Shown piece after piece: positions 3,093 to 25,831 of a stretch of DNA of 54,397 nt. The position numbers were made by a program, and so were the translations under genes. The DNA lies in assembly GCA_031296075.1 (NCBI GenBank), contig JARLGK010000232.1, positions 1 to 54,397 on the forward strand, given 5' to 3'. Below the pieces are notes generated by a model. The model was not told the DNA's origin, did no database searches, and saw only the letters and a program-made list of their open reading frames with translations. The first letter of the stretch is position 1; every line of letters starts with the position of its first letter. Origin of the DNA: Candidatus Acidiferrales bacterium (GTDB lineage: Bacteria > Acidobacteriota > Terriglobia > Acidiferrales > UBA7541).

Positions 3093-3578
3093 ATGGACCT
3101 CGATCGGATTCGAGAGGCGGCGGAGCGGGTGGCCCGTTCGATGGGCCTGGAGATCTTCGACGTCGAGTGGAAGGTGGGCAAGCAGCGCCTTCTGCGGGTC
3201 TATATTGACCGCCCGCCGGACGCGGCCAACCCCGGTTATCTGGGGAATGGCGCTGGTGTCAGTCACAGCGATTGCCAAAGCGTCAGCGAGCAGTTGAGCG
3301 TGATTTTGGATGTGGAAGACCTAGTACCGGGACCGAGCTACACGCTGGAAATCAGCTCGCCGGGCCTGGATCGGAAGCTGATCAGGCCGGGCGACTACCA
3401 GCGGTTCACGGGGCGGCTGGCAAATATTTGGCTGAACGAACCAGTAGAGAACCAGAAGTATTTTCAGGGCCGGCTGGCGGGATACGCGGACGGGATCGTG
3501 AAGCTGACGGTGCGCGATCGGGAAGTCGCCGTGCCGTACGCCGGGATTCGCAAAGCGAACCTGGTGGTGGAACTGTAA
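3093..3578 (+). CDS. rimP: Ribosome maturation factor RimP
   Basis: At 161 residues it has the usual length for RimP, which helps mature the 30S subunit. The N-terminal alpha/beta domain (about 1-85) contains MGLEIFDVEW and the family's LEISSPGLDRKL segment near residues 88-100; an Sm-like beta-barrel domain follows (about 100-161). A short glycine-rich insertion (PGYLGNGAGV) sits in the middle of the N-terminal domain where many RimPs have only a short turn. It is the first gene of the conserved rimP-nusA-infB-rbfA-truB operon, 25 bases ahead of nusA. Confidence 0.96.
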   Translation: MDLDRIREAAERVARSMGLEIFDVEWKVGKQRLLRVYIDRPPDAANPGYLGNGAGVSHSDCQSVSEQLSVILDVEDLVPGPSYTLEISSPGLDRKLIRPGDYQRFTGRLANIWLNEPVENQKYFQGRLAGYADGIVKLTVRDREVAVPYAGIRKANLVVEL

Positions 3579-3603
3579 TGGGTGGGAGTGAGGAGAAACA
3601 GGG

Positions 3604-5148
3604 ATGGCGAGTCTGCTGTACCAGACGATCGAGCAGATCAGCCGGGAGAAGCACATCGAACCGGAGATCATCGTTGCGGCCATTGAGGACGCGATGGTGG
3701 TGGCTGCGCGGAAATACTACCGCACCGAGGAAGATCTCCGTTCGAAGTTCAACGCGGAGAGCGGCCAGATAGACGTGTTTTCAGTTCATACGGTGGTGGA
3801 AGAAGTCGCGGACCCATTGCGCGAGATTTCGCTTGCGGACGCGCGTAAACAAAAGCCGGATATCGAAGTGGGCGGCGAAATCACGGCAGTGAAGCCGACC
3901 GACGTGCTGGGAAGAATCGCAGCGCAAACCGCCAAGCAGGTCATCCTGCAGAAGGTGCGCGAGGCGGAGCGCGACACGATCTATAACGAATTCCACACCC
4001 GCGTGGGCGAGCTGATCAACAGCGTGGTGAAGCGGATGGAAGGCCCGGACCTGATCGTGGACCTCGGGCGCACGGAAGCGCGGCTGCCGAAGCGCGAGCA
4101 ATCGCGGCTGGAGGCTTACAACGTGGGCGACCGCCTGCGCGTGACAATTCGCGCGGTCGAGCGTGCAGCCAAGGGGCCGCAAGTGATCGTGTCGCGCGCC
4201 GATCCCGCTCTGGTGCAGCGTCTATTCGAGATGGAAGTACCGGAAATTTACGACGGCACGGTGCAGATTCGCGCCGTAGCGCGCGAAGCGGGCGAGCGCA
4301 CGAAAATCGGCGTCGAAAGCCGCGACAAGGATGTGGATCCGGTCGGCGCTTGCGTGGGCATGAAGGGCATGCGCGTGCAATCCATCATCCGCGAACTGCG
4401 CGGAGAGAAGATCGACATCATTCCCTGGAGCGAAGAGACCATCACGTTCGCGCAGAAGGCCCTGAGCCCCGCGAAAGTAACGCGCGTGCAGATCATTGAC
4501 GCGGAGGAAAAGCGGCTCGAAGTGATCGTCGAGGATACGCAGCTTTCGCTCGCCATCGGCAAGAAAGGCCAGAACGTGCGGCTGGCGAGCAAGCTGATCG
4601 GCTGGAACGTAGATATCAAGAGCGAAGAGGAAAAGCGCCGCGAGATCGAAGCGCAAATGGCCGCTCTCACCGCTCCGGGCACTCCGCTGACGGAGCTCGC
4701 GGGAGTCGGGCCGAAGACGATCGAGAAGCTGGAAGCGGCGGGCATTACCTCTGTCGAGAAGCTGGCGGATATGACGCCGGAACAGCTTGTTGAAATTCCG
4801 GGCATCGGCGAGAAAATGGTGGAGAAGATTCACCAGTCTGTCGCGGCGTACTTCGAAGCGCTCGAATCGCAGGCGGTGGCTCCCGTCGAGCCGTCAACCG
4901 AAGACGAGGCTGCCGCGGAAAGCGTAGTGACCGAGGCCGCGGCGACGGAAGTTGTCGAGACTGCTACGGCCGGCGAAACAAGCGGAAGCGAGGCATCGTC
5001 GAGCGAGGCGTCGTCAAGCGAGGCGTTGTCAAGCGAAGTGGCGGCAAGTCCGGAAGAAACACCGGAAGATGAAGAAACAACTCCGGCGGACAAAGCAGCA
5101 GCGGCGACAGTGGACGAAAGCGCGGAGAAACTGGAAACGTCAGAGTAA
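3604..5148 (+). CDS. nusA: Transcription termination/antitermination factor NusA
   Basis: Domains in order: N-terminal RNA-polymerase-binding domain (about 1-125), S1 domain (about 135-200), two KH domains (about 205-345, including VGACVGMKGMRVQ and SLAIGKKGQNVRLA), then a helix-hairpin-helix pair (about 358-420, LAGVGPKTIEKLEAAG and IPGIGEKMVEKI). The last 90 residues are an acidic, Glu/Ser/Ala-rich tail with tandem SSEAS-type repeats. NusA modulates pausing, termination and rRNA antitermination. The HhH pair stands where proteobacterial NusA has acidic repeats. The start is preceded by AGGAGAAACAGGG. Confidence 0.96.
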   Translation: MASLLYQTIEQISREKHIEPEIIVAAIEDAMVVAARKYYRTEEDLRSKFNAESGQIDVFSVHTVVEEVADPLREISLADARKQKPDIEVGGEITAVKPTDVLGRIAAQTAKQVILQKVREAERDTIYNEFHTRVGELINSVVKRMEGPDLIVDLGRTEARLPKREQSRLEAYNVGDRLRVTIRAVERAAKGPQVIVSRADPALVQRLFEMEVPEIYDGTVQIRAVAREAGERTKIGVESRDKDVDPVGACVGMKGMRVQSIIRELRGEKIDIIPWSEETITFAQKALSPAKVTRVQIIDAEEKRLEVIVEDTQLSLAIGKKGQNVRLASKLIGWNVDIKSEEEKRREIEAQMAALTAPGTPLTELAGVGPKTIEKLEAAGITSVEKLADMTPEQLVEIPGIGEKMVEKIHQSVAAYFEALESQAVAPVEPSTEDEAAAESVVTEAAATEVVETATAGETSGSEASSSEASSSEALSSEVAASPEETPEDEETTPADKAAAATVDESAEKLETSE

Positions 5149-5205
5149 AGCGTGCCGCTCCAGGTTTCCGGCGCGGCGCGAGCAATTTTCGAAAGATAGA
5201 GGCTG

Positions 5206-8016
5206 ATGTCAGATTCCAAACAAGTCCGTTTGAACGAGCTGGCGCGGGAACTCGAGATCAAGGCCAAGGTGCTGATTGACTATCTGCCTGAGATCGGCGT
5301 CAAAGAAAAAAAGACACACTCAAGCTCGATTGATATCGAGCACGCCGAGCTAGCGCGGAAACATTTCCTCGGGCTGGCAGCGGCAGAGGTTGCCGCGGAA
5401 GCAGCCAAGGTTGCGGCGGCCAAAGCGAAAACCGCGCGACCCGTTGCCGCTCCCGCTGCGGTGCCCGCGAAACCTGCCGGGCCAGCGCCTGCACCTCTTC
5501 GTGCAACACCTGCATCTCCGGCTGCGCCGTTGCGAGCTCCCGTGGGACCAGCGGCGGCACCCGCAGCCGCTTCTCCGAGCGGTGTTCCGGCGCGTCCTGC
5601 TGCGGCTCCAACTGCGCCACCTCCGGCAACCGGGCATCCGCCTGCACATCCGACCGCACATCCAATCGCGGCGAGGCTCGGAGTTGCGCCTGCATCCACG
5701 GCTCCGAGACCATCTGCGCCTCCGGCATTACGACCAGCGGCGGCCAGCCCCACGGGTGCGCCCGGTGCGCCTCGTCCGGCAGGCCCGCCGCCAACAGGTC
5801 AAAGATTTCCGGCCCGTCCGGGCCAATCCGGCCCTTATCAAAATCGTCCCGGCGCTCCGCAAGGTATGCGTCCTGCGGCTGCTCCCGGTCAAGTTCGGCC
5901 GAGCGGTCCGCCGAGGCCCGGCGGTCCCCCATCGAGATTTCCGCAGCGACCCGGCGGACGTCCTGGCTCAACAGAACCAATCGGCAGCCAGCGGCCCGGC
6001 GCTACCGGTGGCGTTGCCAAAGCTGAGCCTGGAAAACCGCTGTATGCGCGCAAGCCTCCCGCCTCGCGCGGGCGGCCAACGATCGAAAAGCGGTATGCGG
6101 AAGGTGAGCGAAGGCTTCATCCGGTGCGCACGCGCGCCGGAGTGGGAGCGGGGCGCGCCGCGCACGTTGAGCCGGTTGCTCCGGTCCAGCGCGAACCGCG
6201 CGCGGTGACGGTCACCGAAGGAATCACGGTTCGCGAGCTCGCCGAAAAACTCGATATTCGTGCCAAGGAATTATTGAAGACGCTGCTCGATCGCGGCATT
6301 TTCGCCAGCATCAACCAGGCGCTCGACGTGCAAACGGCGACAAGCCTTGCCGAGTCGTTCAATGGAGTCGTACAGGTGGTCACGTACGAAGAGCAGCTCG
6401 TCGAGGAAGAAAAGATCGAGGAAGGGCGGACTGGAAATGCGCTGCCGCGCGCTCCCGTGGTGACCGTGATGGGCCACGTGGACCACGGCAAGACCAGCTT
6501 GCTCGACGCCATCCGCGAAACCGAAGTCGCCGCCGGAGAAGCGGGGGGAATCACGCAGCATATCGGCGCGTACCAGGTGCACGTGGGCGACCGCCGCATC
6601 GTCTTCATCGATACACCGGGCCACGAGGCGTTTACGCGCATGCGCGCGCGCGGCGCGAAAGTGACCGACATCGTCGTGCTGGTGGTGGGCGCGGACGACG
6701 GCGTGATGCCGCAAACCGAGGAAGCGATGGCGCACGCGAAGGCCGCGAATGTGCCGATCGTCGTAGCGATCAACAAGATTGACAAGCCGAACGCCGAGCC
6801 CGAAAAAGTCAAACGCCAGCTCGCCGACCGCGGCTTGATGCCCGAGGAATGGGGCGGCGACACGGTGATGGTCGAGGTTTCCGCGAAAGCCAAGAAGAAT
6901 CTTCCGAAGCTGCTCGAAATGATCCTGCTGGTGGCCGATCTGCGCGAGCTCAAGGCCGATCCCGCCGCTCCGGGAAGCGGCACGGTGCTCGAATCGCGCA
7001 TGGACAAAGGCCGTGGCCCGGTCGCCACGGTGCTGGTGCAGAACGGCACACTAAGCGTGGGCGACGTTTTCATCGTTGGCGCCGTGTACGGCAAAGTCCG
7101 CGCGATGTTCGACGATCGCGGACAGGCAATTCAGAAAGCTCAACCTTCGACGCCTGTGGAGGTGCTCGGTTTGCAGGGCGTGCCCGAAGCGGGTGATCAG
7201 TTCCAGGTGGCGGACGAAGCCAAGGCACGGCACATCGTCGAATACCGGCAGGCGAAACAGCGCGAGGCGGCGCTCGCCAAGACGGCTTCTTCCGGACGTC
7301 TGACGCTCGATCAATTGCACGAGCAGCTTCGCGCCGGCGAAGTGAAAGAGCTGGCGGTCGTGGTGAAGGCGGACGTGCAGGGCTCGGTCGAAGTGCTGAA
7401 TGAAATGCTACCGAAGCTTTCGAACGACCAGGTGAAGCTGAAGGTGATGCAGGCCAGCGTCGGCGCCGTTACGGAATCCGACGTTATCCTGGCCTCGGCA
7501 TCGAACGCGGTGATCATTGCGTTCAACGTGCGGCCGGAGCGCAAGGCGTCCGAACTCGCGCAGCGCGAGGGCGTGGAGATCCGCCTGCATACGATCATCT
7601 ACGAGCTGCTCGACGAGCTGCGCAAAGCCGTGGCCGGATTGCTCGCGCCGGTTATCAAGGAAGTTTTCCTGGGACGCGCCGAGGTCCGCAACACGTTCCG
7701 CGTGAAGGGCTCGGGCACGATCGCGGGGTGCTCGGTGCAGGACGGCATCATGAAGCGCGACGCGGAAGTGCGCGTGCTGCGCGACGGCGCGGTGATCTAT
7801 ACGGGGCGCGTCAGTTCGCTGCGACGGTTCAAGGAAGATGCCAACGAAGTGCGCGCGGGATTCGAGTGCGGCGTGGGAGTTTCGAACTTCAACGACGTGA
7901 AAGTGGGCGACATCCTCGAGTGCTTTAAGATCGAGAAGACCCCAGCTTTTGCGGGAGACGCCGTCCTAGCGCCCGACCGAGGCCGTCCGGAAGCCGCCGA
8001 AGCAAGGCGCAATTGA
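5206..8016 (+). CDS. infB: Translation initiation factor IF-2
   Basis: A 936-residue IF-2. An IF2N domain (1-50) is followed by a long Pro/Ala/Arg-rich linker (about 65-320) and a second IF2N domain (about 335-385). The GTPase domain carries GHVDHGKT (about 423-430), DTPGH (near 469) and NKID (near 522); beta-barrel domains and the fMet-tRNA-binding C-terminal domain follow. It delivers initiator tRNA to the 30S subunit. Only 57 bases separate nusA from infB, so the ylxR (DUF448) gene often found between them is absent here. The low-complexity linker generates long spurious open frames on both strands. Confidence 0.97.
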
Positions 8017-8062
8017 GGTCGTAACGGTCCGTTCTTCTCCGCAGGGATTCGATGGGGCGCCC

Positions 8063-8356
8063 ATGCCGATCGGCCTCCTCACTCTGGAAATTCACATACC
8101 CGATGCGCGGTCGCTGAAGGATAAGCGACAGGTGCTGCGCAGCCTGAAGGACCGGTTGCGCGCCCACTTCAACGTGGCTGTCGCCGAACTGGAACATCAG
8201 GAACTGTGGCAGCGGTCGCGCGTGGGAGTGGTGAGCATTTCAGGCGACGGGAAGCATCTGGAAGAATCGCTGCAGGCGATTGCCGAGGAATCCGAGCGCG
8301 TGCTGGGCCGCGATCTGGTGTCGCACGAAATTGAGTATTTCGAGGATGAACAATGA
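8063..8356 (+). CDS. ylxP: DUF503 / YlxP-like protein
   Basis: A 97-residue protein beginning MPIGLLTLEIHIPDARSLKD, with the family pattern SLKDKRQVLRSLKDRLR and NVAVAEL. It matches the DUF503 family (Bacillus YlxP), a small alpha/beta protein commonly coded between infB and rbfA. Its role is unproven; a link with ribosome assembly is assumed from gene context. Its TGA overlaps the rbfA ATG in an ATGA tetranucleotide, so the two are probably translationally coupled. Confidence 0.88.
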   Translation: MPIGLLTLEIHIPDARSLKDKRQVLRSLKDRLRAHFNVAVAELEHQELWQRSRVGVVSISGDGKHLEESLQAIAEESERVLGRDLVSHEIEYFEDEQ

Positions 8357-8715
8357 CGGTCGGGGGATTTCGGCCGGAACGGATTGCCGAAGAAATCCGG
8401 AACGAAGTGATGCTGATGCTCGCGGGAGAATTGAAGGATCCCCGCCTGGCGGTGCCGCTCATCGTCACCGAAGTGCGCGTGGCCCCGGGGATGCGCACGG
8501 TGCGCGTATTCGTGCAGTTTGAGGGCGACCAGGCGGAGCGCGCGGAAGCCCTCAAGGGATTGAAGGCGGCGTCGAAATTTGTCCGGCACGAACTGGTCGA
8601 GCGGCTACGACTGCGGCGCGCGCCGGAGGTGCTGTTTATCCCCGACGACTCGGAAGAGTACGGCCACCGCATTGACGAGCTGCTGCGAAAAGTGAGCCAT
8701 CCGGAGAAATCGTAG
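8353..8715 (+). CDS. rbfA: Ribosome-binding factor A
   Basis: 120 residues forming one KH-like domain. The N-terminal segment RPERIAEEIRNEVMLML is followed by DPRL, a beta strand with VTEVRV, and the AAKFVRHEL-like helix typical of RbfA. The protein binds the 16S rRNA 5' helix during cold adaptation and late 30S maturation. The gene overlaps ylxP by four bases. Its stop codon (TAG 8713-8715) lies inside the left arm of the structured element at 8710-8763. Confidence 0.94.
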   Translation: MTVGGFRPERIAEEIRNEVMLMLAGELKDPRLAVPLIVTEVRVAPGMRTVRVFVQFEGDQAERAEALKGLKAASKFVRHELVERLRLRRAPEVLFIPDDSEEYGHRIDELLRKVSHPEKS

Positions 8716-8763
8716 CGGGGCGCGCAGCCCTTGCAATCGGCCGGCTCGAATCCGGCGCTACGA
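8710..8763 (+). repeat. tRNA-shaped inverted-repeat element between rbfA and truB
   Basis: TCGTAGC (8710-8716) pairs perfectly with GCTACGA (8757-8763). Directly inside the right arm is a 5-bp stem (GCCGG 8740-8744, CCGGC 8752-8756) with the 7-base loop CTCGAAT, as in a tRNA T-arm. A 4-bp hairpin (GGGC 8718-8721, GCCC 8727-8730) follows the left arm. Total length is only 54 bases, so it is not a functional tRNA. It is either a tRNA-derived remnant or a dispersed two-hairpin repeat. It ends seven bases before the chosen truB start. Confidence 0.7.
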
Positions 8764-8769
8764 AACGAA

Positions 8770-9744
8770 ATGCCAAGAACCCCAAAACCTGCGTCCATTG
8801 ACGGAATTCTTGTCGTTGACAAGCCTCGCGGGAAAACCTCGCACGACGTGGTGGAAACCGTGCGCCGCCTGGTCGGCTTTCGCCAGATCGGCCATCTGGG
8901 CACGCTCGATCCGCTGGCGACGGGCGTGCTGGTGCTGGCGCTCGGCCGGGCCACGCGCCTCGCGCGCTTTTACGGCGCACGCCGAAAACGCTACACGTGC
9001 TCGGTGCGGTTTGGATTCGCGACGGACACGTACGACGCCGACGGCGACGCGCTATCAGAGGACGCGGCGCCGGCGCTCGATGCCGCTGCGATTCAAGCGC
9101 TCGCCGACCGATTCGTCGGGAAAATTCAGCAGATGCCACCTTCGTTTTCAGCGAAAAAAATTCACGGGCGTCCCGCGCACGAGCTCGCGCGAAAACACAA
9201 GCCGGTGAAGCTCGATCCCGTCGAAGTGGAAGTTTTTGAGTTCAAGCTGACGGGCGTGGAAGGCTCCTGCGCGCGATTCAGCGTGGAATGCGGGTCGGGC
9301 ACGTACATTCGCTCGCTCGCGCACGATTTGGGAAAGCTGCAAGGAACCGGCGCGCACCTCGCCGAGATCGTCCGGACGGCGGTGGGGGAATTTACGCTCG
9401 ACCATGCCGTCACGCTCGCGGAGCTGGCCGAGGACGCGAAGACGGGAAAGCTCGATGCGCGCGTGATTCGCCTGGAAAACATGCTGCCGGAATTGCCGCG
9501 CGCCACGGTGCTGCCGATTGTCGAGAAGCGTGTGCGGCACGGCGCGAAATTCAATCTTCCCCTCGCGCAAATTCAGCCGGGCCACGTAATCGCCGCGCAG
9601 GGCGCGCCCGCGAAGCTTGATTCCGGCGAATGGCAGCCGTCGCGGCTGCGCGTCTTCAATCAGCAGGGCCACTTGATCGCGATCGCGGAGCCGGTTGTGC
9701 CTCGCACGTACCAGCCTGTGGTCGTCCTCGAAGCCACGCCGTAG
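8770..9744 (+). CDS. truB: tRNA pseudouridine-55 synthase TruB
   Basis: Makes the universal pseudouridine at position 55 of tRNAs. The sequence shows GILVVDKPRGKTSHDVV at the start, then GHLGTLDPLATGVLVLALG, which contains the catalytic aspartate, YTCSVRFG and a C-terminal PUA-like domain. The open frame extends back to a TTG at 8731, but that codon lies within the structured element. The ATG at 8770 gives 324 residues, close to family length, and begins where homology is expected. It is the last gene of the rimP operon and converges on the secretin gene 30 bases away. Confidence 0.94.
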   Translation: MPRTPKPASIDGILVVDKPRGKTSHDVVETVRRLVGFRQIGHLGTLDPLATGVLVLALGRATRLARFYGARRKRYTCSVRFGFATDTYDADGDALSEDAAPALDAAAIQALADRFVGKIQQMPPSFSAKKIHGRPAHELARKHKPVKLDPVEVEVFEFKLTGVEGSCARFSVECGSGTYIRSLAHDLGKLQGTGAHLAEIVRTAVGEFTLDHAVTLAELAEDAKTGKLDARVIRLENMLPELPRATVLPIVEKRVRHGAKFNLPLAQIQPGHVIAAQGAPAKLDSGEWQPSRLRVFNQQGHLIAIAEPVVPRTYQPVVVLEATP

Positions 9745-9774: not shown

Positions 9775-12700
9775 CTATTGTTCGGGCGGACGCTGAGGCG
9801 CGGGCGGAGGCGTGGGTCCCGGCGCGGGAGCCTGCAGTCCCGGCGGCGGATTGAAAACCGGCGAAGGTTCGCCACCGCCGCCAGGACCTTCGAGCGATCC
9901 CTGCCCGGCGTACACAACATGGTCCTGGCGTGGCGCGAGCCGAACCAGCCGCGGCGTAACCAGGATCAGCAGCTCGGAATCCTGCTTCGTGGTGTCCTGA
10001 TTCTGATCGAACAGGCCGAGAACCGGAACATCGGCGACTCCCGGCGTGCCGATGATGGCATTCGACAGCTGCACTTGACGGAACCCGGCGACCACGGCGG
10101 TCTCGTTCTGTTTCAGGCGCACTTTCTGTTCGACGGACTGGTTGCTGATCACCGGAATTTGATTAAAACTCTGCGCGGTCAGGCTGCTGATGTCGAAAGA
10201 AAGATCAAGCGTCACTTCGTCGTTTCCGTGAATGCGCGGCGTGGCTTTCACTTTGAGCCCGATGTCGAGATATTGGGCGCCGGGGAACTGCGCGCCGGCC
10301 GAGCCGATCCCCGAGGGGAAAAGGCTGCTGGAGTTCAGAATCACGGTCGCTTCGGCGGCTCCGCTGTCCGCGGTGGCGGCGTCCGGCCTGCCGTCTCCGT
10401 TGAAATCAGCCGAGACGATGGAGACGGGCGCCGTGCCAACCGGTATTTCGGGAATGAGCGTTGTGAACACGCCTTTGCCCTCGTTGAAAAGAACCGTCAC
10501 CGCGTTGTCGGTGGTGTCCGCGATCGTGAGATCGGGGAAGCCGTCCAGATTGTAGTCCGCCACGGCGAGCGACGCGGGTCCGGCTCCCGCAGCGTAGTTC
10601 GCCTGGAAGGTGAACGTGCCGTCTCCAGTGTTCACCTGGCTCGCATTTGCGTTTCCGAAATAGATCGAAACGCTGTTGCCCGTTACCGTCGTGGAGGGCG
10701 CGCCGCTGTTGGCTACCGCGAGATCGGTCACGCCGTCCTGGTTGAAGTCTCCCGTAACCACAAAAGCCGGAGTATTTCCCGCCGGATAAGGCGACTTGGC
10801 CGCCTGTATGAACGTGCCATCGCCTTGGCCGAGAAACACCTGCACTTGGCCGGCATCCCCGATGACGGTGGACTGCTCCGTCACGATGAGATCCGTGTGG
10901 GGGCTGTTCGTGAAATGCCCCGTGGCGAGCGCGGTCGGATTGAATCCGGCCGCGAGCGAGATCGACGTGGGCGTCTTGAACGTGCCATCGCCATTGCCCT
11001 GAAAGATCGAAACCGTGTGGTCACCTTGGTTAGCGACCGCAAGATCCGGGAATCCGGTGTTGGCAATATCGTGGAAATTGGCGGTGACGACGGAGACGGG
11101 CCCGTTACCGGTTGGCACGTCGGTGCCGGCGACAAACGTGCCAGTTGCAGCGCCCGTGCTATCCGATTGTCCCAGGAGAATCGAAACCGTGTTCGAAATC
11201 TTGTCGGCGACGGCCAGATCGATGTTCCCGTTAAACTTGGTGTTGAATGCGCCCGTGGCGATCCATACAGGATCGACGCCGGCGCCCAGTTGGTAAACCG
11301 TCTGTGTTTGGAATGTGCCGTCGCCGTTCCCGAGCAGAACTGAGACGGTGTTGGCCGCCGAGTTGGTGACGATGAGGTCATTGCTGAAGCTGCTGCCCCG
11401 CAAGACGGCGGTGGCCACGAAGGACGGCGAATTCCCGGCCGGATAATTCGCGAGCGGATTGTTGATCGTGCCGCCGGGCGTGGGCGTGCCGTTCAGGAGA
11501 CTGGGAGCAAAAGTGGAAAGCGAAACGGGGATGCGGTCGCCAACAAAAAAAGTGGCCGGCTGGCCGTCCTGCGCGCGGAGCAGGACGCGCCGCCCGTGAC
11601 GCACGAGCGAGAGCATTTGGGCGAAGTTGGCGGCGGTGCCCGGCATAGTCGCGAAAAAAGTCGTCAAGCCTCCGCCAAAGGCGATCACGTTGGGAGTCGA
11701 AGTCCCCAATACCTGCTCGATCACGTTGATCAGGCCCTCTGCGGACGCCGCCGCCTCCTGAATTTGTTGTGAGCTGACCGTAAACACCCGGGATGATTGC
11801 GGCGGAGTGATGCCCAGCTGCCGGGCGTTATTGCGATCCACCTCCAGAATTTCGATTTCGAGAATCAGCTCGCCGGTAGGCCGCTCGAGATCGTCGATCA
11901 AATCCGTGGCGAGCGCCACGGCGTGCGGAGAGGCGCGCAGCGTGAGGGTGCGGCTGCGCACGTCGAGCTCCGAACGCGTGATGCCCGCGATATCGCGCAC
12001 CAGGCGCGTGATTTCCGTCATCTGCTCGGGCGTTTCAGACGCAGGCAGCAAAACGGTGCGCACCACGGATGCTTCGTAGTCCTTGCGCTTCTGCTGGGTG
12101 TTGTCCGCCACGAAAAACAGCCGCGGCGAAAGTGGCCGCCAGAAGGTTCCGGTCATGTCGCCGAGCAGCCGCGCGGCCGTCGGAAAATCCACGTCGTTGA
12201 TCTGAAATCGAATCTGCCGCACGTGCAAATCCACATCGAAAGCGGCTTCCACTCCGAACTGGCGCCCCAGTTCTGTGTATGCGCCCTGCGTGTCCCCGCG
12301 ATAGTCGAAATTTCGATGACCGTCTTGATATTCCAGCCGCGGCTCCGCAGCGAGTTCCACGTGAGCCGGCTTTCGCGGCTGGCCCGGTTCGATCGCGGCT
12401 AACTCCGCCAGTCGCTCGCGCACCACCGCGTTCGCCGGGTCCGTGAAGCTCGCGCTCAGCAGCTCTTTGCGCGCGGCGTCCAACCGACCGGAAATCGCGT
12501 CGCGCTCCGCGGCGTCGATTTTGGATCGCACCAGACGGCTCTTGGCAATTTCGCGGTGAATGGCATATTGGCGGTTGTCGGGCGCCCAGTTGGCGGCATC
12601 GGTGTAGGCAGTGTAGGCCGTGTCCCAGTCCAACTGACGCTCGGCACGGGTTCCCTGCTCGTAGGCGGTTTTGGCCTTCTTGGCATCGGGCTTCACGGCC

Positions 12701-12849
12701 TCCGGCTCGGAAAGCTGAGACGGTCCCTGCGAGCTTGCAGCTGGCGCGAGAAGAGTGAGGATCACCAGCGGTACGAGAATGATTCTCGCCCAGGCGTGGG
12801 CTGCGCGCGAGACACGGGGGCCGCCCGTCGAATGAGTTCTAGCCGCCAT
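9775..12849 (-). CDS. Secretin (GspD/PilQ-like) with an inserted seven-repeat FG-GAP/VCBS propeller
   Basis: About 1024 residues. N-terminal hydrophobic signal segment (about 12-32, ending ASSQG), a TPR-like helical region (about 45-150), a secretin N/STN-type domain (about 195-330), and the first part of the secretin pore domain up to VGDRIPVSL near residue 436. Residues about 460-850 then hold seven repeats with the pattern PxxxxTxDFNxDGxxDLAVAN...VSVLLGNGDGTF. The pore domain resumes at YLDIGLKVKATPRI and ends with the classical LLILVTPRLV; a Pro/Gly-rich tail follows. The secretin forms outer-membrane channels for type II secretion, type IV pili or similar machines. The reading frame continues about 1.1 kb upstream antisense to the iron permease; the ATG at 12849 just before the signal segment is taken as the start. 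No other secretion gene is nearby. Confidence 0.88.
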   Translation of the reverse strand: MAARTHSTGGPRVSRAAHAWARIILVPLVILTLLAPAASSQGPSQLSEPEAVKPDAKKAKTAYEQGTRAERQLDWDTAYTAYTDAANWAPDNRQYAIHREIAKSRLVRSKIDAAERDAISGRLDAARKELLSASFTDPANAVVRERLAELAAIEPGQPRKPAHVELAAEPRLEYQDGHRNFDYRGDTQGAYTELGRQFGVEAAFDVDLHVRQIRFQINDVDFPTAARLLGDMTGTFWRPLSPRLFFVADNTQQKRKDYEASVVRTVLLPASETPEQMTEITRLVRDIAGITRSELDVRSRTLTLRASPHAVALATDLIDDLERPTGELILEIEILEVDRNNARQLGITPPQSSRVFTVSSQQIQEAAASAEGLINVIEQVLGTSTPNVIAFGGGLTTFFATMPGTAANFAQMLSLVRHGRRVLLRAQDGQPATFFVGDRIPVSLSTFAPSLLNGTPTPGGTINNPLANYPAGNSPSFVATAVLRGSSFSNDLIVTNSAANTVSVLLGNGDGTFQTQTVYQLGAGVDPVWIATGAFNTKFNGNIDLAVADKISNTVSILLGQSDSTGAATGTFVAGTDVPTGNGPVSVVTANFHDIANTGFPDLAVANQGDHTVSIFQGNGDGTFKTPTSISLAAGFNPTALATGHFTNSPHTDLIVTEQSTVIGDAGQVQVFLGQGDGTFIQAAKSPYPAGNTPAFVVTGDFNQDGVTDLAVANSGAPSTTVTGNSVSIYFGNANASQVNTGDGTFTFQANYAAGAGPASLAVADYNLDGFPDLTIADTTDNAVTVLFNEGKGVFTTLIPEIPVGTAPVSIVSADFNGDGRPDAATADSGAAEATVILNSSSLFPSGIGSAGAQFPGAQYLDIGLKVKATPRIHGNDEVTLDLSFDISSLTAQSFNQIPVISNQSVEQKVRLKQNETAVVAGFRQVQLSNAIIGTPGVADVPVLGLFDQNQDTTKQDSELLILVTPRLVRLAPRQDHVVYAGQGSLEGPGGGGEPSPVFNPPPGLQAPAPGPTPPPAPQRPPEQ

Positions 12850-12975: not shown

Positions 12976-14238
12976 ATGCTTTCCGCTCTTTTGGTCGCCC
13001 TCCGGGAAGGCGTCGAAGCCGCGCTGGTCGTCGGCATCGTACTCGTCTATCTGAATCGCAGCGGGCGGCGCGCCCTGAAAGTGTACGCCTGGGCCGGCGT
13101 TCTGCTGGCCTGCGCGGCAAGCGTTGCCGCTGCCCTCCTCCTGCAACATTGGGCCATCAGCGAGGATGGCTTCGAGGGCCTGCTGATGTTGCTGGCCTCG
13201 GTCCTCGTGGTGACCATGATCATCTGGATGAACCGCGTAGCGCGCACCCTGCGAAAGGACATCGAACGGCGCGTCGAGTCCTACGCCCAGCAATCCACCC
13301 GGGCGGCCGGATGGGGCGTAGGAGCGTTCGTATTCTTCATGGTGGTGCGTGAGGGAGCGGAGCTGGTCCTGATCCTGCGGGCTGTGGAACTTTCGAGCGC
13401 GGGCGTGCAGGTGTGGATCGGGACGATGCTCGGCATCGCGATTGCGGTCGGCGTCGGATTCTTTTTCTTTCAGGGAACGCTGCGGATTCCGCTGCACCGG
13501 TTTTTCACGGCGACGAGCGTGATTCTGATGGTGGTCGCGTTCCAACTGGCGCTCACGGGCGTGCACGAGCTGAGCGAGGCCACGTGGATATGGTCGAGCA
13601 AGACGGAAATGGCGTGGGTCGGCCCGATCGTGCGCAACGAGGTCTTTTTTTTCGCCGTGATTCTCGGTGCGGCCACGCTGGTGGTGCTGCGCGAATGGTT
13701 CGGGGCCCGGCGGCCGGCGGAAGATTCCTCGGTGAATCCCGCCGAGCGTCGCATGCGCGAATGGGAATTCCGCCGGCAGCGGCGATGGAGCTTCGCGGCG
13801 GCCATTCTGTGCGCGCTGGTGATCGTTTCGCTCGCCGCCGAGTTCGCTTATAGCCGCGCCATGGCCGCGCCGACTCCGGCAAAGACTCTGGAGGCGCAAA
13901 ACAATCAGGTCCGCATTCCGCTTTCCGAGCTCACGGACCAAAGTTTGCATTTCTATACCGCGGACGTGAATGGCACCGTGGTCCGCTTCCTAGTAATCCA
14001 CAAAACGAACGGCGATTACACCGCGGCGCTCGATGCCTGCCAGATTTGCGGCCGAGCGGGCTACCGTCAGGAAGGCCAGAATGTCATCTGCCGGAACTGC
14101 GGCGCGTCCATCTACGTTCCTTCGATCGGCGACCACGGCGGTTGCAATCCCATTCCCGTGAAATCCAGCGTCGTCGGGGGAGAGGTAATCGTCGATCTCT
14201 CGGCGCTGGCTGACGCCGCCGCGACGATCCGCTCCTGA
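12976..14238 (+). CDS. FTR1-type iron permease fused to a DUF2318 iron-sulfur-membrane-like domain
   Basis: The first 280 residues are a seven-helix FTR1/EfeU-type permease with the two REGxE iron motifs (REGVE at 10-14 and REGAE near 125-129). After a further membrane helix (about 272-292), residues 300-420 form a DUF2318 domain with cysteine pairs CQIC (about 355-358) and CRNC (about 372-375) and a later GGC. In the Campylobacter p19 locus these are two separate genes (Cj1658 and Cj1660, from memory). The fusion suggests that the periplasmic cysteine domain hands iron to, or keeps it in the right state for, the permease. First gene of the operon; one base separates it from the next start. 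Confidence 0.87.
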   Translation: MLSALLVALREGVEAALVVGIVLVYLNRSGRRALKVYAWAGVLLACAASVAAALLLQHWAISEDGFEGLLMLLASVLVVTMIIWMNRVARTLRKDIERRVESYAQQSTRAAGWGVGAFVFFMVVREGAELVLILRAVELSSAGVQVWIGTMLGIAIAVGVGFFFFQGTLRIPLHRFFTATSVILMVVAFQLALTGVHELSEATWIWSSKTEMAWVGPIVRNEVFFFAVILGAATLVVLREWFGARRPAEDSSVNPAERRMREWEFRRQRRWSFAAAILCALVIVSLAAEFAYSRAMAAPTPAKTLEAQNNQVRIPLSELTDQSLHFYTADVNGTVVRFLVIHKTNGDYTAALDACQICGRAGYRQEGQNVICRNCGASIYVPSIGDHGGCNPIPVKSSVVGGEVIVDLSALADAAATIRS

Positions 14239-14239
14239 A

Positions 14240-15526
14240 ATGTTCGCAAGAATCGTAGGCCAATCGTTTGCTCGTAACCCGCGCCGCAAGCTGCTGACCA
14301 TGGCGGCCCTCGTGCTGGGCATCACTGTGGCTACTGCGACGCTTACAGTTGCCTTGGAAGTCGGCGACCGCATGGCGCGGGAATTTCGCAGCCTCGGCGC
14401 CAACCTTCTGGTCACTCCCGAATCGGACACGCTGCCGCTCGAAATCGGCGGCGTGGATTACCGCCCGGTGGACGAGGGCGCCTATCTGCAGGAAGCCGAC
14501 CTCGGCAAGCTCAAGACGATTTTCTGGCGGCACAATATTCTCGGATTCACGCCGTTTCTCGACGTGCCTGCATATGTCTCGGCCACCGGGGGCGCGACCA
14601 CGCTTATTGGCACGTGGTACGACCATGAAGTTGCCGTGCCGGATGGAACAACTTTCAAGACCGGCGTGAGCGCCACTCACCCGTGGTGGAAGATTCAGGG
14701 CCGCTGGTTCAGCGATGCCGCGAACGAATGCGTTGTCGGAGCGAGTCTGGCGGCGAAATACCCCGGCGCTATCGCGATCGGCAAGACCATCTATGTTGCG
14801 CAGACCGAGAAATCGAGCGACATCCGTCCGCTCGTCGTGACCGGAATTGTCTCGACCGGAGATGCGGAAGACAACGCGATATTAGTCCCGCTCTCCGTGG
14901 CGCAAGGCATCTCCAATCATCCAGGCCAATTTCGCCAACTGTTCGTGAGCGCCCTCACAAAACCCGCTGACGCTTTCGCCGAACGCGATCCGAAATCGCT
15001 GACGCCAACGGAGTACGACCGCTGGTTCTGCTCGCCTTACATTTCCTCGATCAGCTACCAGATCAAACAGGTCATTCCGGGCGTCGACGTTCGCGCGATT
15101 CGCCGCGTGGCTGAAACCGAGGGGCGCATCCTCTCGCGCGTGAGCACGCTTCTTTGGATTGTCACGCTCGCGGCGCTCATCGCGGCGGGCCTGGCCGTAG
15201 CCGCCACGTCCGCGGCTGCCGTCCTCGAGCGGCGTGTCGAGATCGGCGTCATGAAAGCGATTGGCGCCACAAACACTTCGGTCACCGCGTTGTTTTTGAC
15301 GGAGCACCTGACGCTCGCTCTGATTGGGGGAGCGATCGGATTCTTTCTAGGCGCGGGCCTCGCACGCTTTTTGGGCGCGAGCGTTTTCGGCACGCCAGCA
15401 TCTCCCCGGTTCATCCTTTTGCCAGTCGTTCTCGGGCTTGCAATCCTGGTGGCCCTCATTGGCGGCTTGATTCCCTTGCGGCGGGCGGCGCGTTTCGATC
15501 CCGCGCCGATCCTGCGAGGCGAGTAA
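14240..15526 (+). CDS. ABC transporter permease, FtsX/MacB type (first of pair)
   Basis: 428 residues: an N-terminal membrane helix (about 18-40) after a basic NPRRKLLT segment, a large extracytoplasmic domain (about 45-300), then three C-terminal helices of an FtsX domain, including RRVEIGVMKAIGATNTSV, the coupling region for the ATPase. MacB/LolCE-type permeases do mechanotransmission rather than classical import. Downstream of FTR1-DUF2318 it corresponds to the Cj1661-type permease of p19-like iron systems. Its TAA overlaps the next ATG by one base. Confidence 0.87.
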   Translation: MFARIVGQSFARNPRRKLLTMAALVLGITVATATLTVALEVGDRMAREFRSLGANLLVTPESDTLPLEIGGVDYRPVDEGAYLQEADLGKLKTIFWRHNILGFTPFLDVPAYVSATGGATTLIGTWYDHEVAVPDGTTFKTGVSATHPWWKIQGRWFSDAANECVVGASLAAKYPGAIAIGKTIYVAQTEKSSDIRPLVVTGIVSTGDAEDNAILVPLSVAQGISNHPGQFRQLFVSALTKPADAFAERDPKSLTPTEYDRWFCSPYISSISYQIKQVIPGVDVRAIRRVAETEGRILSRVSTLLWIVTLAALIAAGLAVAATSAAAVLERRVEIGVMKAIGATNTSVTALFLTEHLTLALIGGAIGFFLGAGLARFLGASVFGTPASPRFILLPVVLGLAILVALIGGLIPLRRAARFDPAPILRGE

Positions 15527-16683
15527 TGTTCCCCCGCCTTCTTTGGAAGCTGCTCCGAAGCAATCGCGGCCGCCTGGCCGTGGCGCTCGTGGCCGTGATC
15601 AGCGGGGCCACGGTGATTTCGGCCCTCCTGAATGTTCAGTTCGATATCTCACGCAAACTGACGCAGGAATTTCAGATGCTTGGGCCTAATCTGGTGATCG
15701 CTCCGCCAGGCAGAATGCAAACGCAGAACGCAGGAGCAGCTTCGGCACCGCTGATGGACGAGGCCACCGTCGCCGGCCAGATTGCCCGGACGCGGACGCC
15801 TGCTCTGATTAGTGCCGCGCCATATCTTTACATCGTCGCGCGGGTGGCCGACACACCCGTCGTCGTGGCGGGGACGCAACTCGGGGAAGCGGAAATCCTG
15901 AATCCTACATGGAAGCAGGAGACAGGTTTTCCACGGTATCTGCCCGCCACCCGCGCGCGTCCCCTGGACGCATGCATTGTGGGCCGAAACGTGGCGCGGC
16001 AATTGAAGCTCGCGCCCGGCGGCCCGTTGGAACTGAAATACCTCAACCGCACCGCCGCGATGACGGTATGGTCGATCCTCGATTCAGGCGGAGCGGAGGA
16101 TAATCAGATTTTCGCCGATTTGACCGTCGTGCAGACACTCGCGGGAATGAAGGGGCAGATCCAAGTTGAACAATTGCGGGTGAATGGCACGTCTTCAGCG
16201 ATCTCCGCATATGCCGCCAGCCTGTCTAAATCCCTGCCCGGTTACGATGTGCGCCCCGTCCGCGCGGTAAGCGAAGCCGAAGGCAATCTGCTGAACCGCA
16301 CTCGCCTGTTGATTTTATCGATGATCCTGCTGATCCTGGTGCTCACCGCGCTGTGCGTGCTTGCCACCATGGCTGCGCTCGCGATGGAGCGGCGCGCCGA
16401 CGTTGGCCTGATGAAGGCGCTCGGCGGAACGATCTCGCGCATTGTAGGATTGTTCCTCGCCGAAGTAGGCGTGCTCGGCGCAGTCGGCGGGTTGATCGGG
16501 TGCGTCGCGGGCTTGGCACTCGCGCAATGGATGGGACGCCAAGTCTTCGGGACGCCCATCACGCCGCGCTGGGAAATTTTCCCGCTGACGATTGCGATGA
16601 TGGTCGTCGTGTCCATGGCAGGCGCTCTACCCCTGCGAACCCTTGGAAAAATAAAGCCGGCTGTAATTCTGCGAGGAGAATAG
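15526..16683 (+). CDS. ABC transporter permease, FtsX/MacB type (second of pair)
   Basis: 385 residues with the same plan as its neighbour: N-terminal helix (about 15-36), extracytoplasmic domain with LGPNLVIAPPG, and three C-terminal helices with MERRADVGLMKALGGT as the ATPase-contacting loop. The open frame reaches back to 15154 inside the previous gene; the ATG at 15526, overlapping that gene's stop as TAATG, is chosen because the MFPRLLWKLLRSN start is typical. The two paralogues probably form a heterodimer served by the single ATPase that follows. Confidence 0.88.
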   Translation: MFPRLLWKLLRSNRGRLAVALVAVISGATVISALLNVQFDISRKLTQEFQMLGPNLVIAPPGRMQTQNAGAASAPLMDEATVAGQIARTRTPALISAAPYLYIVARVADTPVVVAGTQLGEAEILNPTWKQETGFPRYLPATRARPLDACIVGRNVARQLKLAPGGPLELKYLNRTAAMTVWSILDSGGAEDNQIFADLTVVQTLAGMKGQIQVEQLRVNGTSSAISAYAASLSKSLPGYDVRPVRAVSEAEGNLLNRTRLLILSMILLILVLTALCVLATMAALAMERRADVGLMKALGGTISRIVGLFLAEVGVLGAVGGLIGCVAGLALAQWMGRQVFGTPITPRWEIFPLTIAMMVVVSMAGALPLRTLGKIKPAVILRGE

Positions 16684-17354
16684 TGGCGCCGCTAGTACAA
16701 ATTGAGAACCTGCGAAAAGAGTTCGCCAACGTGCGCGCGCTCGATGGCGTGTCGTTCGTCGTGCAGGCAGGCGAATGGATCGCCATCATGGGCCCCTCAG
16801 GGTCGGGCAAAACAACACTGATCAATATTCTAGGCGGGCTCGACACGCCGACCTCCGGCCGGGCGATTGTGGATGGCACGGACGTCGCGCGGCTTGATGA
16901 AAACGGCCTGGCGCGCTTTCGCGCCGAGAAGATCGGCTTCGTCTTCCAGCAGTTCCATCTGGTCCCGTATCTCACCGCGCTCGAAAACGTGATGCTCGCG
17001 CAATATTTTCACAGCACCACGGATGAGGGCGAAGCCCGCGAGGCGCTCGGGCGTGTTGGCCTCACCGATCGCGTCGAGCATCTGCCGGGGCAGCTTTCCG
17101 GTGGCGAACAGCAGCGCGTGGCCGTCGCCCGCGCGCTGATCAATCATCCGAAGCTGATTCTGGCCGACGAGCCCACGGGCAATCTCGACGAAGCGAATGA
17201 GGGGATCGTGCTGAAGCTTTTGCGCGAGCTGCACGCCGAGGGGCACACCATCCTGATGGTCACGCACGCAGCCTCGATCGGCCAATTGGCCGACCGGCGC
17301 ATCGACCTCGCGCACGGCCGCTTGGCCACCGAACACGCCGCTCGAAGGGTCTAG
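16683..17354 (+). CDS. ABC transporter ATPase, MacB/LolD type, of the iron operon
   Basis: 223 residues with Walker A GPSGSGKTT (about 39-47), Q-loop FVFQQFHLVP, signature LSGGEQQRVAVARAL, Walker B LILADEPTGNLD and the H-loop MVTHAAS. The LADEPTGNLD form is typical of the LolD/MacB/FtsE class. The GTG at 16683 overlaps the TAG of the permease by one base and follows a GAGGAGA ribosome binding site; the longer open frame from 16353 is rejected. Last gene of the FTR1 operon; its end overlaps the convergent EVE gene by four bases. Confidence 0.92.
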   Translation: MAPLVQIENLRKEFANVRALDGVSFVVQAGEWIAIMGPSGSGKTTLINILGGLDTPTSGRAIVDGTDVARLDENGLARFRAEKIGFVFQQFHLVPYLTALENVMLAQYFHSTTDEGEAREALGRVGLTDRVEHLPGQLSGGEQQRVAVARALINHPKLILADEPTGNLDEANEGIVLKLLRELHAEGHTILMVTHAASIGQLADRRIDLAHGRLATEHAARRV

Positions 17355-23722: not shown

Positions 23723-25831
23723 GTGCGGAAATTCGAGCTCGTTCTCCTGATTCACGCCCATCAACCGGTCGGAAATTTCGACGACGTACTCGAACGCGCC
23801 TACAAAAATTCCTACCTGCCTTTCGTCGAAGTGCTCTCGCGCCATCCGTCCATCCGCATGGGCCTCCACTATTCAGGGTCGCTTCTCGAATGGATCGAGC
23901 GCGCGCACCCGGAATATTTCGATCGTCTCCGCGCACTCGTCTCGAGCGGTCAGGTGGAAATCGTCGGTGGCGGATTCTACGAGCCAATTCTGCTGACCAT
24001 CCCGCCCGACGATCGCCTCGAACAAATCGCGCGGCTGGCCGCCTACGTTGATAAACATTTCAAGGTGCGCCCGCGGGGCGCATGGCTTGCCGAGCGCGTC
24101 TGGGAGCCACAAGCTCCCTCATCCCTGGCGTCCGCCGGCGTCGAATACACGCTGGTGGACGACAACCATTTTCTCGGCGCCGGCTTCCAGCTTGAGGAGC
24201 TCCTCGGCTACTACACCTGCGAAGATTTGGGCCACACGGTCAAGGTTCTTCCCGGGCTGAAGTCCCTGCGATACCTAATTCCCTTTCGCGACGTAGGCGA
24301 GACCACCGAGTTTCTCCGCGACGCCGCGAGCAGGCATCCGGGCGGCTTCGCGGCCATGGGCGACGATCTCGAAAAATTCGGCGTCTGGCCGGAGACCAAT
24401 AAGCATTGCTATCGCGACGGATGGCTCGATCGTTTCTTCACCGCGCTGGAAAAATGCGGCGAATGGCTTGCCACCTCCACTCCCTCGGACGCGGTTGCTT
24501 CGCACCCGCCGCTCGGCCGCGCGGACCTGCCCGCCGCGTCCTACACCGAGATGATGGAGTGGTCGCTGCCCACGCCTGCGCGCGAGCGCTATCACAGCCT
24601 CCTCGACCAGTTTTCGGCCCGCGCGGACGTGATGCCTTTCCTGCGCGGGGGAATCTGGCGCAGTTTTTTCACGAAGTATTCCGAAGCGAACCTGCTCCAC
24701 AAGAAAATGCTGCACGTCTCGCACAAGATCCGACGGCTCGCGCGCAGCCGCCGGTTCGACCGCGCTTTTAAAAAGGCGCGCCAGGAAGCTACCACGCTGC
24801 TTTTGCGCGGGCAGTGTAACGACCCCTACTGGCACGGAGTTTTTGGCGGACTCTACTCGCCCCACCTGCGCACCGCCGTGTGGCGCTCGCTCGCGCAGGC
24901 CGAGACCATCGCCGACGGGCTCGCGCACCACAAGCGGCCCTTCGCTCACGCGGCCGCGCTCGATTTCAATGCCGATGGCCGCGACGAAATCTATCTCACT
25001 TCCGACCGCTACGCCGCGCTCATCGTTCCCGATGATGGGGGCACGATTGCCGCTCTCGATTTTCGCCTGTCGAATGTGACGCTGATCAACTCGCTTCAGC
25101 GCCGCCCTGAGACCTATCACGCCAAGCTGCGAAATCTTTCCGCGCAGCGCGTCCAGGGCGCGCAATCCATTCACGAGCAGACGCGCGCCAAGGAGGAGGG
25201 CCTTGAGCGCTGGTTGAACTACGACCGCTGGCCGCGAAATTCCTTCCGGCTGTTGCTCTTCGGCCAGGGGAAAACTCACGAGGACTACGCCGCCATTCGA
25301 TTGGAGGAACACGCCGCCCTGGCGGGAGGACCATATCGTGTCAGCCAGTCATCCTCGACCGGCGTATCGCTGTCTTCCGAAGACAATTCCGATTGGCTTG
25401 CGGAAAAAAGCATTTCCTTTGTTTCGACGCCGGAGGGATTCGACGTCACCTGCGACGTATTGTTGCGCCGCAAAGCACCAGGCGCCGCCTCGGTGAACGT
25501 CGCGATCGAGGTTGTCGTGAATTTCCTCGCGCCCTCGGAATCCAATCGCTTTTTTGAACTGGATGGCCGGCGATTCCCGTTGCGATGGTCCGCCGCCGTC
25601 CCAGCCGCCGTTTTGCGCGTGGTGGACGAGTGGCAGCAAGCCGCTGTGGCCTTGCAAGCGGACGCCGCACGGCATCTATGGGTCGCTCCGATCGAAACTG
25701 TTTCCGAATCAGAGGACGGCTTCGAGCGAATCTATCAAGGATCGCAAATCGCTGCCGTGTGGCCGGTGGAATTGGCGGCCGGTGCGGAATGGAAGGGTCA
25801 GCTCATGCTGCGCGTCTCGCGTCTCAGCTGA
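23723..25831 (+). CDS. GH57 4-alpha-glucanotransferase / alpha-amylase with DUF1925 and DUF1926
   Basis: 702 residues. The GH57 catalytic barrel (about 1-290) begins ELVLLIHAHQPVGNF and contains the nucleophile E124 in WLAERVWEP and the acid/base D214 in MGDDLEKFG, at almost the same positions as in the Thermococcus litoralis 4-alpha-glucanotransferase. DUF1925 (about 300-390) and the beta-sandwich DUF1926 (about 410-700) follow. It lacks a signal peptide, so it probably remodels glycogen or maltodextrin in the cytoplasm. The start is GTG at 23723, with only a weak ribosome binding site. No other glycogen gene lies in the window. Confidence 0.93.
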   Translation: MRKFELVLLIHAHQPVGNFDDVLERAYKNSYLPFVEVLSRHPSIRMGLHYSGSLLEWIERAHPEYFDRLRALVSSGQVEIVGGGFYEPILLTIPPDDRLEQIARLAAYVDKHFKVRPRGAWLAERVWEPQAPSSLASAGVEYTLVDDNHFLGAGFQLEELLGYYTCEDLGHTVKVLPGLKSLRYLIPFRDVGETTEFLRDAASRHPGGFAAMGDDLEKFGVWPETNKHCYRDGWLDRFFTALEKCGEWLATSTPSDAVASHPPLGRADLPAASYTEMMEWSLPTPARERYHSLLDQFSARADVMPFLRGGIWRSFFTKYSEANLLHKKMLHVSHKIRRLARSRRFDRAFKKARQEATTLLLRGQCNDPYWHGVFGGLYSPHLRTAVWRSLAQAETIADGLAHHKRPFAHAAALDFNADGRDEIYLTSDRYAALIVPDDGGTIAALDFRLSNVTLINSLQRRPETYHAKLRNLSAQRVQGAQSIHEQTRAKEEGLERWLNYDRWPRNSFRLLLFGQGKTHEDYAAIRLEEHAALAGGPYRVSQSSSTGVSLSSEDNSDWLAEKSISFVSTPEGFDVTCDVLLRRKAPGAASVNVAIEVVVNFLAPSESNRFFELDGRRFPLRWSAAVPAAVLRVVDEWQQAAVALQADAARHLWVAPIETVSESEDGFERIYQGSQIAAVWPVELAAGAEWKGQLMLRVSRLS

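What the first reader, a model, noticed from the sequence alone, without database searches (positions are those of the whole stretch)
9775..12849. A secretin whose outer-membrane pore domain is split by a complete seven-repeat FG-GAP/VCBS propeller
One continuous frame runs from an N-terminal secretin half ending VGDRIPVSL (near residue 436) through seven FG-GAP/VCBS-type repeats (about 460-850) and back into the second half (YLDIGLKVKATPRI to LLILVTPRLV). Seven is the blade number of integrin-type propellers. In ordinary GspD/PilQ proteins this junction is a short loop of the pore domain. If that loop faces outward, each channel subunit would display a propeller, giving a crown of 12-15 calcium- or ligand-binding heads on the channel mouth. 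That would suggest a receptor or adhesin function combined with a secretion pore. I do not know of a described system with this layout.
Basis: partly seen in the sequence, partly recalled or inferred. Interest (0 to 1): 0.8.

Follow-up and report, generated by a model that had tools for sequence, protein, structure and literature searches.

The report
Secretin with propeller in its gate
A bacterial outer-membrane channel protein carries a complete seven-bladed, integrin-like propeller inside the very loop that normally seals the pore, and relatives carry other folds at the same spot, suggesting that the gate of this channel has become a mount for recognition domains.

Summary

The insert lies between the two conserved hinge glycines (G437, G864) of Gate 1, the loop that closes the pore in solved secretins (VcGspD G453, VcPilQ G439).

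It is no artefact. A junction-spanning match occurs in 78 of 89 family genomes, 12 of 13 genera; 30 of 30 aligned copies have seven repeats; propeller dN/dS is 0.05-0.32. Insert-less orthologues sit at the same locus.

Gate 1 is also used elsewhere. Of 21 secretins examined in another family (not a random sample), one has its own FG-GAP propeller there, one has four Ig domains, four an unassigned ~450-residue insert and one a 250-residue insert.

Best explanation (0.5): an orphan secretin whose gate carries propellers; too bulky for the lumen, they probably form a tethered extracellular crown linked to the gate. Surface exposure, ligand and gating are inferred. I found no description in print. 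New variant of a known kind.

The parts
9775..12849 (-). whole gene, 1024 aa plus stop
   Evidence: open frame; junction-spanning match in 78 of 89 family genomes
12727..12849 (-). signal peptide region, residues 1-41, no lipobox cysteine (by eye)
12400..12687 (-). TPR-like helical domain, residues 55-150
   Evidence: helices at pLDDT 80-93 in residues 51-110, lower after; NCBIfam Amuc_1098/TraC N-terminal matches; Pfam TPR in relatives L086, L002
12100..12318 (-). STN/N0-like domain, residues 178-250
   Evidence: by alignment to the paralogue, which has a weak STN match (E 0.023, below cut-off)
11875..12087 (-). Secretin_N-like domain, residues 255-325
   Evidence: below threshold here (E 0.048); above it in insert-less orthologue L077 (E 2.4e-8)
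11542..11868 (-). secretin domain, pre-gate half, residues 328-436
   Evidence: homology to paralogue and insert-less orthologues
11539..11541 (-). Gate 1 hinge glycine G437 (= VcGspD G453)
   Evidence: conserved in 30 of 30
11458..11538 (-). gate-loop linker 1, residues 438-464
   Evidence: variable after P441, low pLDDT
10312..11457 (-). seven-bladed FG-GAP beta-propeller inserted in Gate 1, residues 465-846
10261..10311 (-). gate-loop linker 2, residues 847-863
10258..10260 (-). second Gate 1 hinge glycine G864 (= VcGspD G481)
   Evidence: conserved in 30 of 30
9940..10257 (-). secretin domain, post-gate half, residues 865-970
   Evidence: PF00263 E 2.8e-23 on the piece from residue 851 on
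9778..9939 (-). C-terminal proline-rich tail
8731..9744 (+). truB, convergent neighbour, conserved
12976..14238 (+). FTR1-FtrD iron permease, divergent neighbour

Best explanation
It is an orphan secretin of the outer membrane in which the tip of the pore-sealing Gate 1 loop carries a closed seven-bladed FG-GAP propeller on two linkers of roughly 17-27 residues, with both hinge glycines kept. In the assembled ring, 12-15 propellers cannot pack in the lumen, so the gate arms most likely point outwards and the propellers form a tethered crown over the channel mouth. The crown recognises a polymer, surface or substrate, and because each propeller is joined to both arms of a gate, binding or displacement is coupled to gate opening. 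Shown: sequence, gate position by alignment, conservation, seven repeats, orthology. Predicted: the propeller fold. Inferred: ring assembly, surface exposure, binding, gate coupling.
For: Both hinge glycines and P441 are conserved in 30 of 30 aligned orthologues. The site aligns to VcGspD G453-G481, the Gate 1 loop that is modelled or proposed to flip up and out on opening (passages of PMC8563730, PMC7545093). Seven repeats in 30 of 30. Propeller under purifying selection, dN/dS 0.05-0.32 in 8 pairs, with distances tracking the core (Mantel r 0.80, 0 of 9999 permutations as high). Twelve to fifteen propellers would need a column of 121-152 A at 100% packing in an 80 A lumen. In another family Gate 1 carries a second FG-GAP propeller (L104), four Ig domains (L135, Ig_3 E 3.4e-30) or an insert with a weak FliD match (L146), fold types usually found outside the cell (general knowledge). 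Thermus PilQ has an extracellular crown, and mutations that disrupt it abolish DNA uptake, though that crown is not made by PilQ (passages of PMC5745081).
Against: No topology or localisation data. In closed secretins Gate 1 points into the lumen. The secretin part of the model is of low confidence (490 of 1024 residues under pLDDT 50), so the route of the linkers is unknown. The gene is not next to pilus or type II genes, so channel function itself is unproven. The steric estimate uses the dimensions of other secretins. The Ca motif is not conserved in every blade. Of the seven f7 inserts, the four related ~450-residue ones have no assigned fold and the FliD match of a fifth is far below its cut-off.
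Confidence: 0.5

Rival explanations
1. Surface-display anchor: the secretin ring has stopped working as a regulated channel and serves only as a multimeric outer-membrane anchor that presents propellers for adhesion.
For: No pil/gsp genes among the neighbours tested. Nine genomes examined have three (seven genomes) or four (two) secretins over the cut-off; seven of nine have two two-domain GspF/PilC-type proteins, the other two (G018, G037) have two plus a pair of single-domain ones, so secretins outnumber platforms if that pair counts as one system.
Against: Both gate hinges are conserved in all 30 copies and both secretin halves and the N-domains align with insert-less relatives; insert-less orthologues sit at the same locus.
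Confidence: 0.2
2. Lumenal or periplasmic substrate receptor or plug: the propellers stay inside, bind cargo below the gate or cork the channel.
For: Gate 1 points into the pore in closed secretins (PMC8563730 passages); linkers could reach either way.
Against: Volume of 12-15 propellers exceeds an 80 A lumen unless stacked over more than about 120 A; lineages with Ig or FliD-like inserts at the site fit an outside position better.
Confidence: 0.22
3. Neutral passenger: the gate tip tolerates domain insertions and the propeller has no function of its own.
For: The site has taken several unrelated inserts in relatives and is insert-less in genus g10.
Against: Seven repeats kept in 30 of 30 and dN/dS 0.05-0.32.
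Confidence: 0.07
4. Assembly or fusion artefact.
For: Window genome is a draft in 241 contigs.
Against: The same junction in 78 of 89 family genomes.
Confidence: 0.01

Closest known systems
Type II/IV secretins GspD and PilQ (solved: 5wq8, 6w6m and others)
   Same: Post-gate secretin domain and hinge glycines; TPR/N-domain plan as in the own-genome paralogue
   Different: Gate 1 hinge glycines are 28 (VcGspD) to 30 (pIV) residues apart there, 427 here; scores far below the GspD and PilQ curated cut-offs; no gsp/pil operon among the neighbours tested
Thermus thermophilus PilQ crown (PMC5745081, passages)
   Same: A ring of extracellular heads over a secretin
   Different: That crown is reported as not part of PilQ; here the propeller is encoded in the secretin itself and in the gate, and its place outside is inferred
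Vibrio-type GspD cap (PMC6532946, passages)
   Same: Extra element that would cover the channel mouth
   Different: A beta-hairpin described at the outermost region, not a folded domain in Gate 1
Integrin alpha beta-propeller
   Different: No other integrin part; other seven-bladed propellers score within 1 Z unit (tied)
PilY1-type adhesins (recalled; listing only)
   Same: Propeller combined with a type IV pilus machine
   Different: PilY1 is a separate tip protein, not a pore

Membership tests
Secretin (PF00263) | Secretin domain after the gate | tested here: met
   E 1e-24 whole, 2.8e-23 on the piece alone
Secretin (PF00263) | Secretin domain before the gate | tested here: met
   By homology only: paralogue over residues 56-468, E 8.4e-37; insert-less orthologues L077 and L086 continuous in PF00263. 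Pfam on the window's own N piece gave no Secretin match
Secretin (PF00263) | Gate 1 hinge glycines | tested here: met
   G437 and G864, 30 of 30
Secretin (PF00263) | N-domain (Secretin_N) | tested here: inconclusive
   14.3 bits against cut-off 28.2 here; 34.5 bits in orthologue L077
Secretin (PF00263) | Outer-membrane ring of 12-15 or more subunits | not testable with these tools
   needs biochemistry or cryo-EM
GspD of type II secretion (TIGR02517) | Equivalog score | tested here: not met
   76.3 bits against 351.35
PilQ (TIGR02515) | Subfamily score | tested here: not met
   68.6 bits against 284.35
GspD/PilQ | Gene in a gsp or pil operon | tested here: not met
   neighbours tested are translation genes and an iron permease/ABC set
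FG-GAP seven-bladed propeller | Seven FG-GAP repeats | tested here: met
   30 of 30 orthologues (28 with seven matches, 2 with seven plus a partial first one)
FG-GAP seven-bladed propeller | Closed propeller fold | tested here: met
   prediction only:
FG-GAP seven-bladed propeller | Ca-binding DxNxDGxxD loops | tested here: inconclusive
   3 of 7 blades in the window; 12-21 of 30 orthologues per blade with a slightly relaxed pattern

The most novel reading that the evidence does not exclude
Gate 1 of this secretin lineage is a modular receptor mount: evolution swaps propellers, Ig arrays and other recognition folds into the pore gate itself, giving ligand-gated outer-membrane channels in which up to 15 heads on the surface open or close the channel when they bind.
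Probability: 0.3. Interest if true: 0.9.

Novelty: new variant of a known kind. Interest (0 to 1): 0.73.

Why it matters
What opens a secretin gate is, to my knowledge, still debated. A whole family of bacteria with a large folded domain fixed in Gate 1, and relatives with other folds at the same place, gives natural experiments on gate mechanics and on how a pore-sealing loop can carry a folded domain. If the heads are outside, it would be a new layout that joins a recognition crown and a giant channel in one polypeptide, and a possible scaffold for multivalent display.

Tried and rejected
Artefact: rejected by family-wide conservation. Viral origin: three viral-contig scans found no relative; a further query (A2) was returned as not conserved enough to search. 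The 20 genome-contig loci match only by their propellers, not by the secretin part. Insert as a general habit of long secretins in the phylum: seven fetched secretins with long frames from other lineages (L106-L110, L113, L114) show no large gap at the gate by BLAST coordinates, although in L106 the N-side match stops early. A single clean gain in f1 is not settled: on the core tree the label needs 2 changes, with insert-less G028 nested at 93/88; the AU test does not reject one clade of propeller bearers (p 0.198). TAL-effector hits of the L138 insert were taken as compositional. Foldseek's first rows by E-value for the model are BBSome and LGI1 propellers as well as integrins; taken as the shared propeller fold. 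The second structure prediction was not used. Literature searches found no described secretin with a propeller in it; only the held open-access library was searched and only listings were read. One search served to find structure papers; of four (PMC6532946, PMC8563730, PMC7545093, PMC5745081) I read passages found by terms. In one search three of 41 loci (L063, L069, L093) lacked the 3' part. The alignment of 30 left out four f1 loci that are fragmentary or frame-broken (L069, L091, L092, L093), and the trees also left out L063 (contig end). In one search a few partial matches reach into the propeller part of the query (such as G316, residues 45-232 at 25% identity) and were not examined. In one search ten matches besides G667 begin before residue 31 of the query; two (G796, G779) were fetched, the other eight have frames of 516-622 aa and were not. 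Of frames of 700 aa or more, at least one (G630) was not fetched.

Full report

Where the insert sits. Aligned to insert-less relatives, the insert lies between VG437DRIP and DIG864LKV. A profile of seven insert-less secretins aligns with V. cholerae GspD (5wq8); counting on that row puts the glycines at 453 and 481. Passages of PMC7545093 name G453 of VcGspD as putative gate hinge and G439 as its VcPilQ equivalent; passages of PMC8563730 say that two conserved glycines bound Gate 1, which extends to the pore centre when closed and, in their model of opening, pivots up and out. So the propeller is in Gate 1. Counting both glycines, hinge to hinge is 428 residues here, 385-439 in the 29 other aligned orthologues, and 40-42 in six insert-less relatives and the paralogue. 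Both hinges are conserved in 30 of 30; the linkers are among the least conserved parts.

Conservation. A 236-residue query across the propeller-secretin junction gave a match spanning it in 78 of 89 family genomes (one, G012, cut by its contig end just after the junction) and in 12 of 13 genera (listing, counted). The eleven others: G028 and G098 (genus g10) are insert-less; G002 has the gene split over two contigs; G017, G026 and G071 gave no match, G073, G076, G103 and G112 only a match to the secretin end of the query, probably the paralogue, and G099 a short contig fragment that cannot be placed. Of 396 genomes drawn from the phylum only the window's own showed a full junction match among the rows listed (the list was cut). 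All 30 aligned copies have seven repeats; two of them show the partial first unit as an eighth match. In eight pairs dN/dS of the propeller is 0.05-0.32, above that of the core in seven; five of the eight propeller dS exceed 1, so the ratios are rough. Core and propeller distances correlate (Mantel r 0.80).

Locus. In 33 of the 38 loci that hold the 3' part, truB lies within 400 bases of the secretin match in opposite orientation; an FTR1 permease lies within 800 bases of the N-side match, divergent, in 26 of 41 (counted). Insert-less orthologues of two other families of the order share truB (four of five) or FTR1 (two of five), so the gene is old and the insert younger. On the core tree the propeller label needs two changes; the insert-less G028 nests inside the family at 93/88, and with G098 added at 91/89, but one clade is not rejected (p 0.198): one gain and one loss, or one gain after g10 split off. 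The nine genomes tested have three or four secretins over the cut-off; seven of nine have two two-domain GspF/PilC-type proteins, G018 and G037 have an extra single-domain pair. This secretin has no platform gene among the neighbours tested.

Gate 1 elsewhere. A class-wide search (399 genomes, E up to 1e-25) gave one spanning match outside the family: G667 of family f7. Its 1108-residue frame has seven FG-GAP repeats in Gate 1, and its core pairs with insert-less G646 of f7 at 100/100, away from f1. This looks like a second acquisition, but it is one draft genome whose congeners G579 and G723 are insert-less. In a search of 121 genomes of f7, 119 matched and only G667 over the whole junction query. 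I then examined 21 f7 secretins, chosen mainly for long frames plus the top matches, so not at random: 7 have 250-459 residues between the flanking matches, 14 have 2-13. G777 has four Ig domains (Ig_3 E 3.4e-30); G796, G771, G794 and G673 share an insert of about 450 residues without a Pfam match above cut-off (G796: Cep192_D6, E 2.9e-4, below cut-off); G557 has 250 residues with a weak FliD match (E 2.4e-5, far below cut-off). On the f7 tree the insert types, 'none' included, need four changes in all, and G777 lies among the ~450-residue bearers (94/90), as if one insert had been exchanged for another.

Mechanism. With 110 Da and 1.21 A3/Da per residue assumed, one propeller is about 51,000 A3; 12-15 of them would fill an 80 A wide lumen over 121-152 A at full packing, while the hinges on an 80 A circle are 17-21 A apart (the 8 nm is from PMC7545093). 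They cannot all sit in the gate plane. Open gates are modelled to flip outwards, and fold types that I know mainly from outside the cell recur at the site, so I favour a tethered outer crown whose binding is coupled to the gate (0.5). A mere display anchor (0.2) and an inner receptor or plug (0.22) remain. Thermus PilQ has an outer crown of 13 spikes reported not to be PilQ; mutations that disrupt it abolish DNA uptake (passages of PMC5745081). A survey of 197 proteobacterial T4aP secretins reports AMIN, N0, N3 and secretin domains (passages of PMC7545093); its authors dropped six sequences that opened large gaps.

Novelty. Seven literature searches found no such protein. It is a secretin by domain, not GspD or PilQ by curated cut-off. 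I call it a new variant of a known kind; the recurrent use of Gate 1 as a mount is the most unusual part.

Noticed in passing
L104:3295-6618 (G667): A second seven-repeat FG-GAP propeller in Gate 1 of a secretin from another family of the class, with an insert-less sister lineage.
   Followed up: yes
L135:3757-5010: Four tandem Ig domains inserted in Gate 1 of the G777 secretin.
   Followed up: partly
L133, L134, L137, L138: Related Gate 1 inserts of about 450 residues, by eye about four beta-type units, no Pfam family above cut-off.
   Followed up: partly
L146:4081-4941: 250-residue Gate 1 insert in G557 with a weak FliD match.
   Followed up: partly
L002:1399-3705: Own-genome paralogue is an ordinary secretin with a C-terminal cohesin domain and, by eye, a lipobox.
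   Followed up: partly
window 12976-17354 (+): FTR1-FtrD fused iron permease followed by two FtsX-type permease frames (one with MacB_PCD) and an ABC ATPase; the FTR1 gene is divergent from the secretin and close to it in 26 of 41 loci.
   Followed up: partly
window 3093-9744 (+): rimP-nusA-infB-rbfA-truB translation gene block; infB and truB were tested in relatives and anchor the locus.
   Followed up: partly
window 23723-25831 (+): GH57 family alpha-amylase/4-alpha-glucanotransferase.
   Followed up: no
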